The notes beneath the pieces are model-generated. The model worked only from the letters and a program-made list of their open reading frames with translations, ran no database searches and had not been told where the DNA came from. From positions 1 to 64,000 of the forward strand of contig JAGCNI010000069.1 of assembly GCA_017646015.1 (NCBI GenBank): a stretch of 64,000 bases of DNA, written 5' to 3'. Of the stretch, positions 52,179 through 57,019 are shown piece by piece. A program made the position numbers and the translations under genes. Origin of the DNA: Lentisphaeria bacterium. Lineage in GTDB: Bacteria > Verrucomicrobiota > Lentisphaeria > Victivallales > UBA1829. Positions within the stretch are counted from its first letter, which is position 1. Each line of letters starts with the position of its first letter.

Positions 52179-52973
52179 TTACCAGGTTCTCAGAAGATCT
52201 GAAACTTTTTTCAGCGATTCACGGGCAGAATACGAGTTCGTAAAATCTCTTGTTTCCAGATTGACATACAATTCTTTGCAACGTGCATCGACCTGATCCC
52301 AAAATGTTCTGATATCCAAATCCCCTTCGCCGATAAGCATATCGGCAAAATGTTTTCCATTTCGTTTCGGAGTGGTATCTGCCTGAGGTGTATCATAGAT
52401 TTTCCAATCTTTCAGGTGCATGTGGACGATGTGATCTTTTAATGAATGATAAGCTGCCACGGGATCATCTGCGGTGGCTGTATTGCCGTGGTCAAAAGTG
52501 AGTTTCAGACCGGGGACAGCGTTGAGGACCTGCAGAACTTCATCGGCGGTTGTGATCGGACTGTTGTAATAACCCGTACTTTCCAAAGTGAGGACCACGC
52601 CAGCCTGTTTTGCTAACGGATAAGCCTGTGCATAATATTCGATCCATGCGTTCCGGTCTTCTTCCATGGTCGTATCGCCTTTCCGGGGAAACGGCGGCAG
52701 CATCATGACGGGAGCACCCATTATGAGTGCATCTTCCAACGAGGCTTTGAAGTCATCCATGTAGGTTTTATCATAATTCAGAAATTTTTCTTTGATCATG
52801 GTGTGAGCCACAATTTTCAACCCGGCATCTTCAGAGATTTTCCGGAGCAGGGCTGGATCTGTGTCATTTGTGGAGATCCAGTCGATTGCATCCATGCCGC
52901 AATAGACTGCCGCTTCTGTAATTTCACGGGGCGTGGAATAAGGCATCATACAAGACATCATACAGAGTTTCAT
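52179..52973 (-). CDS. Sugar phosphate isomerase/epimerase (TIM barrel)
   Basis: A 264-residue TIM-barrel protein of the AP-endonuclease-2 superfamily. VLTLESTGYYNSP, LTFDHGNTA, VHMHLKDW, IGEGDLDIRTFW and YVNLETRD provide the usual acidic and His metal ligands. It shares its promoter (53001-53028) with the epimerase gene after it. The two are not close copies, so they may catalyse successive or alternative steps. The substrate is unknown. Confidence 0.88.
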   Translation of the reverse strand: MKLCMMSCMMPYSTPREITEAAVYCGMDAIDWISTNDTDPALLRKISEDAGLKIVAHTMIKEKFLNYDKTYMDDFKASLEDALIMGAPVMMLPPFPRKGDTTMEEDRNAWIEYYAQAYPLAKQAGVVLTLESTGYYNSPITTADEVLQVLNAVPGLKLTFDHGNTATADDPVAAYHSLKDHIVHMHLKDWKIYDTPQADTTPKRNGKHFADMLIGEGDLDIRTFWDQVDARCKELYVNLETRDFTNSYSARESLKKVSDLLRTW

Positions 52974-53028: not shown

Positions 53029-53094
53029 TATATCTTGTATTCAACGGATTTCCAGTGTTTTTCTTATTTTTTTCAACAGATTCAAACAGAAAAC

Positions 53095-53188
53095 CCCCGT
53101 GCCGGGAGGTCACGGGGGACAACAAAGGAGAGAGTTGTTGTCAGAAAGCCGGTGTTGCGGCTTGTCTGTATCCTACAGAGACTCTCCG
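53095..53188. ncRNA. Candidate structured RNA: four adjacent perfect hairpins
   Basis: Four stems lie side by side: H1 CCCCCGTG/CACGGGGG (53095-53119), H2 ACAACAA/TTGTTGT (53120-53142), H3 AAGCCG/CGGCTT (53147-53164) and H4 TCTGTA/TACAGA (53166-53180). The H2 loop holds GGAGAG, complementary to CTCTCC at 53183-53188, so a pseudoknot is possible. On the minus strand H1 is followed by TTTTC and may end the methyltransferase transcript. The other stems are not needed for that. It matches no RNA family that I recognise, and strand and function are unknown. Confidence 0.4.
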
Positions 53189-53226
53189 GAAGATGATTTG
53201 TTCCCTGTAAAATAAAAAAATAATTG

Positions 53227-54444
53227 TTATCTTTTTTGAAGATACGAGATGCTCTCAAAATGAGAGGTGGTCGGGAACATGTCGATCAGACGGCTTTTTT
53301 GAATACGGTATCCTGATTTTTCCAATACCGCCAGATCCCGGAACAAGGTATCCGGGGAACAGGAGATATACACAATGGCATCGGCTTTGCTGCGGCAGAG
53401 CAGTTCCAATGCATTTTTATCAAGACCTGTCCGGGGCGGATCGATCAGAAGCAGTGTTCCCTTCGGAACTCCTGCCGGATAGTGTTTCCGGAATACAGTG
53501 GCACTGTCGCCCGCAAAAAAACGGCAGCGTTCTGAAACACCATGAGCAGCAGCATTTTGTTTTGCATATTTTATTGCCACAGGATCCAGTTCAATTCCGA
53601 CTGTTTTCAACTCCAGACAATGTTCCGTACAGAGGATGGAAAATACACCGCATCCGCAATAGAGCTCGATCATATTGTTCAGCGCAGACTTTGCAACGGT
53701 TTCGAGTGTTGCTTCTGCCAGTTTTCCTGACATGTAGGGATTGATTTGAAAAAAAGAATTTTCTCCGGTGCAGAATGTTCCAAACCCATCCAGTTCTTCT
53801 GTCAGTGCATTTTCTGTTTTTCCGGTCAGGATCCTGACGCCATTTTCTTTTGTGTGCCGGAACGTGATACGTTGTACCGTACAGGAAAGAGATTCTTTTT
53901 CCCATGTTCTGTTGCGGAGGATTTCCCGGATCTCTTTCCTGGCAAGCAGACAATCTTTCACCGGGATCAGGGTCTGGTTGTCTTCACCTCTGTATCCAGC
54001 CTGAATTGCGGAAGAGTTTTTCTCTTTTTCAATAGATAAAACAATTTTATTCCGCCAGTTTTCTCTGCATACAGCTCCGGTCGGCGGCTGAATGAATTCC
54101 GCAGGAGAACTTTGCAGTTTGGCTTTTTCCGCAAAAGAGAAAAATTGTTTCTGTTTCCATTCCAGCTCCATCGGGTAGGGAATATGCGCATAAGAACAGC
54201 CCGGACATGGATTGGGACACTGTGGAGAAATCCTTTCCGGCGACGGGGTGAGAATTTCAGTGACAACTCCCTCCGAATAATTTTTTTTGTCCGCTGTGAT
54301 CCGGACTCTGACCTTTTCGCCGGGGATAGCATTTCTTACAAAACATACTTTCCCGTTATCCCGTCTTCCGACAGCTTTCCCGCCGAATGCAAGTGCGAAA
54401 ATTTCAATGATTTCCATTCCGGAATCCTGTTTGTTTGTATTCAT
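53227..54444 (-). CDS. 23S rRNA / tRNA (uracil-5-)-methyltransferase, TrmA/RlmD family
   Basis: A class I SAM-dependent RNA methyltransferase of 405 residues. An N-terminal TRAM-like RNA-binding domain (about 10-60) is followed by a Cys-rich CPNPCPGCS that may hold an iron-sulfur cluster, a SAM site with ELYCGCGVFSIL near 272, and the catalytic core DPPRTGLDK and YISCSPDT near 366 with the nucleophile Cys. The exact uracil position cannot be told. ATG 54444 overlaps the stop of the Sel1-repeat gene (TGATG), with GGGAG 7 bp upstream. Longer upstream starts would lie inside that gene. Confidence 0.92.
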   Translation of the reverse strand: MNTNKQDSGMEIIEIFALAFGGKAVGRRDNGKVCFVRNAIPGEKVRVRITADKKNYSEGVVTEILTPSPERISPQCPNPCPGCSYAHIPYPMELEWKQKQFFSFAEKAKLQSSPAEFIQPPTGAVCRENWRNKIVLSIEKEKNSSAIQAGYRGEDNQTLIPVKDCLLARKEIREILRNRTWEKESLSCTVQRITFRHTKENGVRILTGKTENALTEELDGFGTFCTGENSFFQINPYMSGKLAEATLETVAKSALNNMIELYCGCGVFSILCTEHCLELKTVGIELDPVAIKYAKQNAAAHGVSERCRFFAGDSATVFRKHYPAGVPKGTLLLIDPPRTGLDKNALELLCRSKADAIVYISCSPDTLFRDLAVLEKSGYRIQKSRLIDMFPTTSHFESISYLQKR

Positions 54445-56981
54445 CAACGGACTCCCATGATTTTTTTCCGCCATTTCCGTGCTTCCTGTTCATTTTTCAT
54501 GACCCCGATTCCGTCTTTATACATGATGGCGATATATTGCATTGCCACAATATGATTTTTTTCAGCGGCTTTTTTGAACCAGCTCATAGCTGTCTGATAA
54601 TCCGGGGAAACTCCGGCTCCGTTGTAGTACATGATCCCGATACAGCACATGGCATCCGCAGAACCGAGAGTGACAGCTTTCTGATACCAGTTGTAAGCCG
54701 CCTGATAATCCTGAGTGATCCCTTCGCCCCGCTGATACATGCTCGCAACAAGAAGCATGGACTGAAGATGTTGTTTTTCCGCAGCCTGTGTCAACATTGC
54801 CAGAGCCTGTGCGTAATTCTGTTTGACACCATCTTTTCCTGTGTAGTAGATCCAGCCGAGAATATACGCAGAAACAGGATCTGTGAATTCCGTAAGTTTG
54901 CTCAAATATTTTTCCGCTGCCGCATATTGATTCCGGGAAAACAAAATGATCCCCGCTTTTTCAAGTGCATATTTGTTTCCTTTGTCTGCGGGGAGACGGA
55001 GAAAATGCAATGCTGCATCAAGATCTTTGTCGATACCAGTTCCTTCATAATACATTTTTCCCAACAGCAATGATGCCTCATAATTGCCATTGCCTGCTGC
55101 AATTTGAGCGTATTCAGCGGCTTTTTTATGGTCTTTACGTGCCAGACTGTATTCCGCCAGTTTTGCCAATGCGGGAATACTGCCTTTTCCGGCTGCAAGC
55201 AGATAATATTTTTCAGCTTCAGGCGGATTCCCTTTGACAGTTCCAAATCCTTTTTCGGTCAGAGAAGCCAACTTTTCCGTTGCCGGCAGATCGCCTTTAT
55301 CTGAAAGTTTTTTCAATAAGACAAATACAAATTCCGGAGCGGCTTTGATCCCGTCTGCATTTTTCAGGATCAAATCTGCATATTGCCGTACTGCCGGAAG
55401 ATGATCTTTTTCCGCTGCTTTCCGGATCCATTCCAGAGCTGGTTGATTCTTTTTTTCTTCCAACAGGAGAGTTCCGTAAAGATACATAGCTTCGCTGTTG
55501 CCCAGTTCTGCAGCTTTTTTCAGATAAAACTGTGCAGACTGAAGATTTTTATCAACACCTCTTCCCTCCAGTGTCATCTGTCCGCAACGGAGCAGGGCAG
55601 CGACATCATTTTTATCTGCCAGACGCCGGAAGTAGCGGAATGCCGCCGCATCATTTTTGAGCGGTGTTTTTCCTGCGATATACAATTCCGCCAGAAGTCT
55701 TCCGGATTCAAGATCGCCGCTTTCCGCTGCATTTTTCAGATACAATACCGCCAGAGCGTGATCCTGTTTCACTCCTTTGCCGGAAATATACATTTTCCCG
55801 ATTTGGATTTTAGCTTTCTGTGAACCGTTTGCCACAGCTTTTTCAAAAACAGTAAATGCTTTTGCCGGATCGGGAATGATTCCGTTGGATCCATTCAGAA
55901 GCAACATTCCGTAGTAATAAAGTGCATCCGGATCCCGGAGTGTTTTCTGTAAATAGAATTCTGCCAGAACCGGATCTTTGGATTGTCCGAACCCGCCTGT
56001 ATGATAAATTCTTCCCAGCAATCCGTTCAAATCATATTCTCCACTGATCGAGGATTGTTTTTCTTTCAATCCCTGCAACAGCATCAGTGCCGCCTTTGTA
56101 TAATCTTTTGCAGTTCCTCTGCCTTCAAAATAAAATGTTCCCAGAACTGCGGCGATCCCTTCTCTTTTGGCGCGATAGAGTTGCTGATACAATTCAAAGG
56201 CTTTTTTCTGATCCATGATCGTTCCTTTCCCATCACGGTACAAAACAGCCAGATATTCCATCGCTTCCAAACTGCCCCGTTCGGCTGCCTGTTTCAGATA
56301 AGAATATGCCATGGCATAGGATCGTTTGATCTGTCCGGTTCCGTTGAAATAGAGTTTTCCCAGCTCTTCCATCGCCGCAATATTTTTTTCTTTTGCCGCT
56401 TCCTGAAGTGTTTTCAGATACATTTTCGGCTGATCCGGAGCATATAAGAGTGCCAGTTGGTGCAGAAGAGAAACATCGCCATTCTTCAATTTTTCTTTGA
56501 TCCACTGGATCGCTTCTGCCCGTTGGGCTGAATTTGTGATTTCCGGATGTGCAATATACAATCGGATCAGGGCATCTCTACCTTTTTCATAGCCTTTTTC
56601 AAGTGCTTTCCGGAATGATTCTGCCGCCTGTTGATATTTGCCGGATTTGAGAAGTGTCTGTCCCGCTTGAAAGGCAGCTTCTCTTTCCGCCTTGAGATCC
56701 GGTTTCCCGGGGGCAGGCTTCGTGAGAGTTGCTGTTTTTTGCAGCTCTGCAATCATATTTTTCAACTGTTGGCTCTTTTCTGTTTCCGGTTGTTTGCTTT
56801 CAAAAATTTTATCCAGTTGCGCCGCTTTGATCTTGTATGCCCGGGAGCCTTTGGTGTATTTTTTTTCAATCAGTTTTTCTGCCTGATCCATCAGATCCGG
56901 ATAGGTATCCGCAGCAGAAAGAGTCAGAGAAACAAAAATCAAGACAAGAAATGCAGAAAAAATTTTCCGGGATATAGCCAT
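54444..56981 (-). CDS. Exported Sel1-repeat protein
   Basis: An 845-residue protein with a signal peptide (IFSAFLVLIFVSLTLSAA) and a short helical region. From about residue 120 onward it has roughly 18-20 Sel1-like repeats of about 36 residues (pattern ALxLxGxxYxxGxG with D/K and A at fixed places, for example LGKLYFNGTGQIKRSYAMAY). Sel1 solenoids act as scaffolds in signalling and in protein quality control. ATG 56981 is preferred to 56996 because GGAG lies 9 bp before it. It is translationally coupled to the methyltransferase, an unusual pairing. Confidence 0.9.
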   Translation of the reverse strand: MAISRKIFSAFLVLIFVSLTLSAADTYPDLMDQAEKLIEKKYTKGSRAYKIKAAQLDKIFESKQPETEKSQQLKNMIAELQKTATLTKPAPGKPDLKAEREAAFQAGQTLLKSGKYQQAAESFRKALEKGYEKGRDALIRLYIAHPEITNSAQRAEAIQWIKEKLKNGDVSLLHQLALLYAPDQPKMYLKTLQEAAKEKNIAAMEELGKLYFNGTGQIKRSYAMAYSYLKQAAERGSLEAMEYLAVLYRDGKGTIMDQKKAFELYQQLYRAKREGIAAVLGTFYFEGRGTAKDYTKAALMLLQGLKEKQSSISGEYDLNGLLGRIYHTGGFGQSKDPVLAEFYLQKTLRDPDALYYYGMLLLNGSNGIIPDPAKAFTVFEKAVANGSQKAKIQIGKMYISGKGVKQDHALAVLYLKNAAESGDLESGRLLAELYIAGKTPLKNDAAAFRYFRRLADKNDVAALLRCGQMTLEGRGVDKNLQSAQFYLKKAAELGNSEAMYLYGTLLLEEKKNQPALEWIRKAAEKDHLPAVRQYADLILKNADGIKAAPEFVFVLLKKLSDKGDLPATEKLASLTEKGFGTVKGNPPEAEKYYLLAAGKGSIPALAKLAEYSLARKDHKKAAEYAQIAAGNGNYEASLLLGKMYYEGTGIDKDLDAALHFLRLPADKGNKYALEKAGIILFSRNQYAAAEKYLSKLTEFTDPVSAYILGWIYYTGKDGVKQNYAQALAMLTQAAEKQHLQSMLLVASMYQRGEGITQDYQAAYNWYQKAVTLGSADAMCCIGIMYYNGAGVSPDYQTAMSWFKKAAEKNHIVAMQYIAIMYKDGIGVMKNEQEARKWRKKIMGVR

Positions 56982-57019
56982 ACGGTTCAGCTCCATTTGT
57001 TAAAGATTCTTTTGAGATG

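What the first reader, a model, noticed from the sequence alone, without database searches (positions are those of the whole stretch)
53095..53188. Array of four perfect hairpins with a possible pseudoknot
Stems of 8, 7, 6 and 6 bp lie almost without spacers between two minus-strand genes. The H2 loop GGAGAG can pair with CTCTCC just after H4. A simple terminator would need H1 alone. The rest suggests a structured RNA (small RNA or cis-element), although the epimerase promoter lies beyond H1, so a leader role for the epimerases is less likely.
Basis: partly seen in the sequence, partly recalled or inferred. Interest (0 to 1): 0.5.

Follow-up and report, generated by a model that had tools for sequence, protein, structure and literature searches.

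The report
Stress-sigma-driven small RNA in Lentisphaeria
The hairpin array is a small regulatory RNA gene on the minus strand, apparently switched on by an envelope-stress type sigma factor and carrying a fixed sequence that could block ribosome-binding sites; relatives occur in other Victivallales.

Summary
The four hairpins are real (start off by one base). They are not one structured array. On the minus strand they are pieces of a small RNA gene between rlmD and a sugar-isomerase-like gene. H4 overlaps the promoter/start site, H3 is the 5' hairpin, H2 encloses an invariant 15-nt CU-rich stretch (CTCTCTCCTTTGTTG), and H1 is the Rho-independent terminator. A search with those 15 nt alone found 15 RNA loci in 10 of 137 genomes of the order, all in the window's family. 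All 14 complete loci have a sigma-E-like promoter (GGAAC or a one/two-base variant, N17, GTC) 44-49 nt upstream. The 13 distinct RNAs fold with a 5' hairpin, which covaries in genus g10, and a terminator. The same motif (N17 or N18) lies upstream of an RpoE-like ECF sigma gene in 23 of the 30 best matches examined, including the window's own genome. A second family (genus g48) has 4-5 shorter copies per genome with this promoter and a related CU-rich stretch. Best reading: an ECF-sigma-dependent, base-pairing small RNA with an anti-Shine-Dalgarno seed, working like RybB/MicA or fusobacterial FoxI/FoxJ. Targets are unresolved and there is no expression evidence. The pseudoknot is rejected. New family of a known kind.

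The parts
53200..53204 (-). -35 element GGAAC of a sigma-E/ECF-type promoter
   Evidence: GGAAC-N17-GTC at 53204-53180; this motif or a variant at the same spacing in 14 of 14 complete f1 loci found by the seed alone
53180..53182 (-). -10 element GTC
   Evidence: published sigma-E boxes are GGAACTTTT and GTCAAA (PMC1804206, passage read)
53165..53179 (-). H4 of the finding: overlaps the -10/transcription start region, probably not transcribed as a whole hairpin
   Evidence: position relative to GTC; in relatives the 5' helix begins about 8-12 nt after GTC
53084..53171 (-). predicted small RNA, about 85-88 nt (5' end inferred, within about 3 nt)
   Evidence: promoter plus terminator; homologs. 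The R1 match at 53172-53085 is by construction, as the window was one of the 13 sequences of the model
53142..53168 (-). 5' hairpin (contains H3)
   Evidence: a 5' hairpin folds in 13 of 13 distinct RNAs; covariation shown in genus g10 only
53120..53134 (-). invariant 15-nt stretch CTCTCTCCTTTGTTG, proposed anti-Shine-Dalgarno seed
   Evidence: 15 loci in 10 genomes, identical by construction of the search; the unconstrained DNA search reached the same stretch in 7 loci of relatives, the weakest (G011) at E 0.099
53119..53141 (-). H2: hairpin that puts the seed in its loop; only in genera g1 and g3
   Evidence: folds; absent in g10 and g48
53084..53118 (-). H1: Rho-independent terminator with T-rich tail, possibly shared with rlmD
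   Evidence: terminator-like site 53111-53092, - strand; 4 of 11 terminator pairs changed on both sides in at least one of 13 sequences
53227..54474 (-). rlmD/rumA, 23S rRNA m5U1939 methyltransferase (upstream neighbour)
   Evidence: TIGR00479 246.7 bits, cut-off 183.55
52179..52973 (-). xylose-isomerase-like TIM-barrel protein (downstream neighbour)
   Evidence: PF01261 E 3.5e-22

Best explanation
A free-standing small RNA gene, transcribed from the minus strand by RNA polymerase carrying an RpoE-like ECF sigma factor (own-genome copy at G000:C110, followed by a probable membrane anti-sigma gene). Under envelope-type stress the sigma factor would be released and transcribe its own operon, some envelope/quality-control genes and this RNA. 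The RNA has a 5' hairpin, an invariant CU-rich stretch complementary to an extended Shine-Dalgarno sequence (CAACAAAGGAGAGAG), and a terminator; it would base-pair over ribosome-binding sites of mRNAs and repress them, forming the repressive noncoding arm of the response. Shown by sequence comparison: conserved gene, promoter match, terminator, strand, same promoter motif before the sigma gene. Inferred: expression, sigma dependence and autoregulation, the stress signal, target repression, any RNA chaperone.
For: Seed-only search: 15 RNA loci in 10 of 137 order genomes; reversed-pattern control 4 hits in 137 (the 16th forward hit is an antisense SD site in G016). GGAAC (10), AGAAC (1) or CGATC (3), then N17-GTC, in 14 of 14 complete loci, 44-49 nt upstream of the seed, and at no other spacing from 12 to 22. 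Covariation in the 25-pair g10 structure: 6 pairs, all in the 5' helix, with two-sided changes (reached by 8 of 500 shuffles), covariation score reached by 0 of 500, 96.4% of cells paired against 31-44% when slid; 11 G-U against 3 A-C cells in the helix. ECF gene: GGAAC-N17-GTC in the 150 nt upstream in 21 of the 30 best matches, N18 in 2 more, shuffle rate 0.2%; apart from 17 and 18 no spacing from 10 to 25 occurs more than once. The ECF matches E. coli sigma-E (1or7) at 1.9e-33 and TIGR02939 RpoE at 3.7e-42, below its cut-off. G135 and G136 (another family) have 4 and 5 short copies with the same promoter; one of these, L091/L336, was found by a model that did not include the promoter. Flanking genes differ between loci.
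Against: No transcript data. Not universal: no member recognised in G001 (same genus) nor in the 13 g5 genomes, although all 13 have the ECF and the 12 of them examined have its promoter motif. 7 of 30 ECF loci lack GGAAC-N17/18-GTC; two of these (G135, G136) have CGAAC-N18-GTC by eye and five (G005, G007, G008, G014, G015) have neither. One covariation measure was not above shuffles (further pair types, 240 of 500), and the g10 terminator helix hardly varies. No conserved target: exact 12-nt complements outside the RNA genes number 12 in 12 genomes, against 10 for the reversed control; weaker matches recur only between close species. The genome-wide promoter count (72 against 18 reversed controls) is weak, because a mis-spaced version also exceeded its control (27 against 9) and many sites lie inside ORFs. 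8 of the 9 g48 copies were found with a pattern that includes the promoter, so their promoter is not independent evidence.
Confidence: 0.75

Rival explanations
1. Plain rlmD terminator (H1) plus chance hairpins in a short intergenic gap.
For: H1 is a good terminator on the strand of rlmD, 109 nt after its stop; the H3 and H4 stems are only 6 bp.
Against: The region upstream of H1 recurs with an invariant 15-mer and a promoter motif in 14 complete loci, with other neighbours where I looked.
Confidence: 0.05
2. Cis-acting leader (attenuator or riboswitch) of the downstream gene.
For: In the window an isomerase-like gene starts about 110 nt beyond the terminator on the same strand; in 3 of 4 g10 genomes a PstS-like gene follows the second copy.
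Against: Neighbours differ between loci, and in at least one (L044) the next ORF is on the other strand. The invariant part is a linear CU stretch rather than a ligand fold. In three g10 genomes two copies with separate promoters and terminators stand in tandem.
Confidence: 0.1
3. A small RNA that acts not on single mRNAs but by binding a protein, or as a general brake on translation (its CUCCUUU copies the 16S anti-SD sequence, recalled).
For: Invariant anti-SD-like core; 4-5 copies per genome in g48; no shared extended target found.
Against: The conserved stretch is 15 nt, longer than an SD alone would need; pairing with mRNA at the SD is the common mode for C-rich motifs (PMC4132741 and PMC11005410, passages).
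Confidence: 0.1

Closest known systems
RybB and MicA (sigma-E-dependent sRNAs of enterobacteria)
   Same: Promoter boxes: GGAACTTTT and GTCAAA in PMC1804206 (passage) against GGAAC, mostly followed by (A/T)TT, and mostly TGTC here; about 70-90 nt; terminator; an RpoE-like sigma factor in the genome.
   Different: No match to any Rfam family at its cut-off; the conserved part is an internal CU-rich anti-SD stretch rather than the 5' end (5'-end seeding of RybB is recalled); different phylum; targets unknown.
FoxI and FoxJ (sigma-E-dependent sRNAs of Fusobacterium nucleatum)
   Same: Sigma-E sRNA arm in a phylum far from Proteobacteria; C-rich seed, in a loop (FoxJ) or linear (FoxI); more than one sRNA (PMC11005410, passages).
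   Different: Here the same RNA is duplicated (tandem in three g10 genomes, 4-5 copies in g48); sequence relation to FoxI/FoxJ not tested; no experiments.
LhrC1-5 (Listeria monocytogenes)
   Same: Multicopy, envelope-stress sRNA with redundant CU-rich (UCCC) motifs of the kind that bind SD sequences (PMC4132741, passages).
   Different: LhrC depends on the LisRK two-component system, not on an ECF sigma factor.

Membership tests
ECF-sigma(sigma-E)-dependent sRNA (functional class) | sigma-E-type -35/-10 boxes at fixed spacing at the start of the RNA | tested here: met
   14 of 14 complete f1 loci, 4 of them with a variant -35 box
ECF-sigma(sigma-E)-dependent sRNA (functional class) | genome encodes an ECF sigma whose own promoter has the same boxes | tested here: met
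   own genome G000:C110, and 23 of 30 best matches with N17 or N18
ECF-sigma(sigma-E)-dependent sRNA (functional class) | Rho-independent terminator | tested here: met
   (prediction)
ECF-sigma(sigma-E)-dependent sRNA (functional class) | transcript induced by the sigma factor | not testable with these tools
   needs RNA data
ECF-sigma(sigma-E)-dependent sRNA (functional class) | base-pairs with and represses envelope mRNAs | tested here: inconclusive
   seed is complementary to SD regions; no conserved target found
RybB, MicA or any other Rfam family | match to the family's covariance model at its cut-off | tested here: not met
   0 matches in the window and in 13 further loci; sub-threshold hits in the window (rli32, PrrF and others) far below cut-off
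FoxI/FoxJ | sequence homology to FoxI or FoxJ | not tested
   sequences not held; only passages of the paper read

The most novel reading that the evidence does not exclude
Victivallales evolved independently a noncoding arm of an RpoE-like ECF response, in which an amplified family of near-identical RNAs (up to 5 per genome) copies the 16S anti-Shine-Dalgarno sequence and acts as a broad SD-blocking brake on translation rather than on a few mRNAs.
Probability: 0.15. Interest if true: 0.8.

Novelty: new member of a known kind. Interest (0 to 1): 0.6.

Why it matters
Sigma-E-dependent sRNA arms are described in Proteobacteria and Fusobacteriota (PMC11005410, abstract and passages). A further occurrence in the PVC group, with its own RNA family, would suggest that pairing an ECF activator with a repressing sRNA is a recurrent solution, and it gives an entry point (promoter motif, sigma gene, seed) for regulation in a largely uncultured phylum. 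Paper searches for Lentisphaerae with small RNA and sigma factor, Victivallis with sRNA and a wider PVC search listed nothing on such an RNA; I saw listings only, and the library is open-access only.

Tried and rejected
Pseudoknot GGAGAG/CTCTCC: on the minus strand GGAGAG lies in the promoter spacer, outside the predicted transcript, and occurs in 1 of 23 promoters, the window's. Plus-strand RNA: the T-run terminator and the ECF promoter are on the minus strand, and G-U counts favour it; the simple sigma-70 scan showed no plus-strand site between 52774 and the array. Rfam at relaxed E-values: chance level. Weak R1 matches: of the 20 loci printed, those I judged by eye are mostly generic terminators; I kept L091 (G136) and, tentatively, L089 (G043: GGAAC-N17-GTC, terminator, a different CU stretch, on the contig that also carries that genome's ECF gene). 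The weak matches without a printed locus were not looked at. The RNAalifold consensus on all 13 RNAs recovered only the terminator, presumably because MAFFT does not align the 5' helix across genera; the covariation count therefore uses the 7 g10 sequences, with a structure I drew from them. Two Thiomicrorhabdus MAG loci with the same 20-mer show no such promoter or GC-rich terminator by eye and were set aside. Target search gave no conserved target. Promoter+seed pattern in the class: 8 of 197 genomes; 7 are known f1 genomes and 1 (G163, L108) was not followed. The last order-wide pattern hit 36 of 137 genomes; outside the known f1 loci and g48 I did not examine its hits, and its reversed control also hit many genomes.

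Full report
Observation. The four stems are present, one base off the stated start, and the region folds better than shuffles on both strands. Hairpin counting alone is weak evidence, so comparison with relatives was needed.

Relatives. A DNA search of 60 relatives plus the window's own genome gave its three strongest other genomes (G002, G024, G019) around H3-H2-H1, with exact 21-mers there in G012, G004 and a second G019 locus, and a weak match (E 0.099) in G011. The core CTCTCTCCTTTGTTG, searched alone in 137 genomes of the order, hit 11 genomes, all in the window's family f1: 15 RNA loci in 10 genomes (one cut by a contig end) and one antisense site in G016, which is the SD region of a lipoprotein-like gene. 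Public names seen for relatives: Lentisphaerae bacterium ADurb.Bin242 (contig length equal to that of G002 C87) and uncultured Victivallales/Lentisphaeria MAGs. NCBI places Victivallales in phylum Lentisphaerota, PVC group.

Anatomy. All 14 complete loci have, 44-49 nt before the core, a box GGAAC (10), AGAAC (1) or CGATC (3), 17 nt, then GTC. No other spacing from 12 to 22 occurs. From about 8 nt after GTC, 13 of 13 distinct RNAs fold as 5' hairpin, core, terminator (the 14th, L042, repeats L043 up to the terminator and was left out). In genus g10 (7 RNAs) the 5' helix has 6 pairs changed on both sides (8 of 500 shuffles reach that), the covariation score is reached by 0 of 500 shuffles, and slid controls pair in 31-44% of cells against 96.4%; the number of further pair types is not above shuffles (240 of 500), and the g10 terminator hardly varies. 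G-U versus A-C cells (11:3) favour the minus strand. In g1 and g3 an ACAAC arm folds the core into the H2 hairpin; in g10 the core has at most 3 weak pairs. H4 of the finding straddles the -10/start region, and the proposed pseudoknot partner lies in the promoter spacer of the window only (1 of 23 promoters).

Sigma factor. Sigma-E boxes in Salmonella are GGAACTTTT and GTCAAA (PMC1804206, passage). In four genomes I listed the 27 Sigma70_r2 matches; one orthologous ECF gene in each has the motif just upstream of its start (G002 and G011 with N17, G004 with N18; own genome with N17, confirmed). Matches to the own-genome protein P0001 at E<=1e-20 occur in 68 of 137 genomes, the weakest probably paralogs. 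Among the 30 best, 21 have GGAAC-N17-GTC within 150 nt upstream and 2 have N18; G135 and G136 have CGAAC-N18-GTC by eye; five (G005, G007, G008, G014, G015) have neither. Shuffles reach N17 in 0.2%, and apart from 17 and 18 no spacing from 10 to 25 occurs more than once. P0001 matches Sigma70_r2 and r4_2, RpoE and SigW models below their cut-offs and E. coli sigma-E 1or7 at 1.9e-33, with a similar region-4 stretch (igtvksrisrgrell against VGTVRSRIFRAREAI). The next gene encodes a protein with a Cys/His motif and a hydrophobic segment, which I read as an anti-sigma factor from recall; Pfam gives no match. Of the 10 f1 genomes with the RNA, 9 have the ECF at E<=1e-20; in the tenth, G023, only a g10-like ECF promoter at a contig end was seen. 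Both g48 genomes have it.

Regulon. The pattern GGAACNTT-N13-TGTC gave 72 hits in 9 genomes against 18 for the reversed control, but the mis-spaced version gave 27 against 9 in 6 of these genomes, so the count is weak, and many of the 71 sites read lie inside ORFs. Recurrence before similar genes is stronger: a VWA-domain membrane protein (BatA-like, name recalled) in 5 of the 9 genomes including the window's (L184, L187, L231, L237, L242; only the L184 protein was scanned), an LptC-like protein in three g10 genomes (L255, L259, L264; only L259 scanned, below the Pfam and NCBIfam cut-offs) and the ECF itself. Single cases include a Lon-like protease (L243) and a membrane-fusion-type protein (L257), named by eye. 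This fits envelope and protein-quality stress, by inference.

Second family. The last search (GGAAC-N17-GTC-N28..58-CTCCTTT) gave four sites each of one kind in G135 and G136, family f4, genus g48. Fetched, they are about 60-nt RNAs, AGAATGTTTCCTCTCTCTCCTCCTTTTGCTG plus terminator, one pair per genome in tandem about 220 nt apart; G136 has a fifth variant, found by the model R1, which does not include the promoter. Spacer sequences differ while -35, -10 and RNA are kept. They show no 5' hairpin, so the shared parts are promoter, CU-rich stretch and terminator.

Mechanism. The stretch is complementary to CAACAAAGGAGAGAG, an extended SD. C-rich motifs that bind SD sequences are described for such sRNAs (PMC4132741, passage), and C-stretches serve as seeds in FoxI/FoxJ (PMC11005410, passage). 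In the three g10 second copies the 5' loop also holds CTCTCC or TCTCC. Specific targets are not established: exact 12-nt complements outside the RNA genes number 12 in 12 genomes against 10 for the reversed control; five of the 12 are followed closely by a start codon and an ORF (lipoprotein-like in G016, cut by the contig end, SDR/FabG-like in G002, pilin-like in G004 and G012, AraC-type in G026), with no conservation across genera. Of 27 matches CAAAGGAGAG-N3..11-ATG in 9 genomes, an RnfA-like gene is shared, but only by G018 and G023.

Verdict. A new sRNA family of a known kind, likely (0.75) ECF-dependent and SD-blocking; expression, sigma dependence and targets untested.

Noticed in passing
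L051, L052, L053, L049 (g10 genomes), starting 51 nt upstream of the first RNA copy's -35 box: A CRP/FNR-like palindrome (TGTGA-N6-TCACA; CGTGA in L051) stands at the same distance in 4 of 4 g10 first copies, and in 0 of 6 g1/g3 loci in the stretch searched, suggesting a second regulator.
   Followed up: partly
L051, L052, L053: In 3 of 4 g10 genomes the tandem RNA genes sit upstream of a PstS-like phosphate-binding protein gene (PF12849 for the G018 protein); not seen in L049 (G011).
   Followed up: partly
L337 (G043:C189), locus position 437, + strand: GGAAC-N17-GTC followed by a CU-rich stretch (TTTCCCTTTTCTTCTG) and a terminator, on the same contig as the ECF gene: possible ECF-dependent RNA with another seed.
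   Followed up: partly
L126 (G011:C3, near the ECF gene on the other strand): A longer sigma-70-type gene also has GGAAC-N17-GTC 37 nt upstream of its start: possible sigma cascade.
   Followed up: no
L031 and L033 (Thiomicrorhabdus MAG): Two near-identical loci carry the 20-mer ACAACTCTCTCCTTTGTTGT after a gene end without this promoter context; probably unrelated.
   Followed up: partly
window 54444-56996, - strand: 850-aa protein with many Sel1 repeats (PF08238, 249.8 bits) next to rlmD.
   Followed up: no
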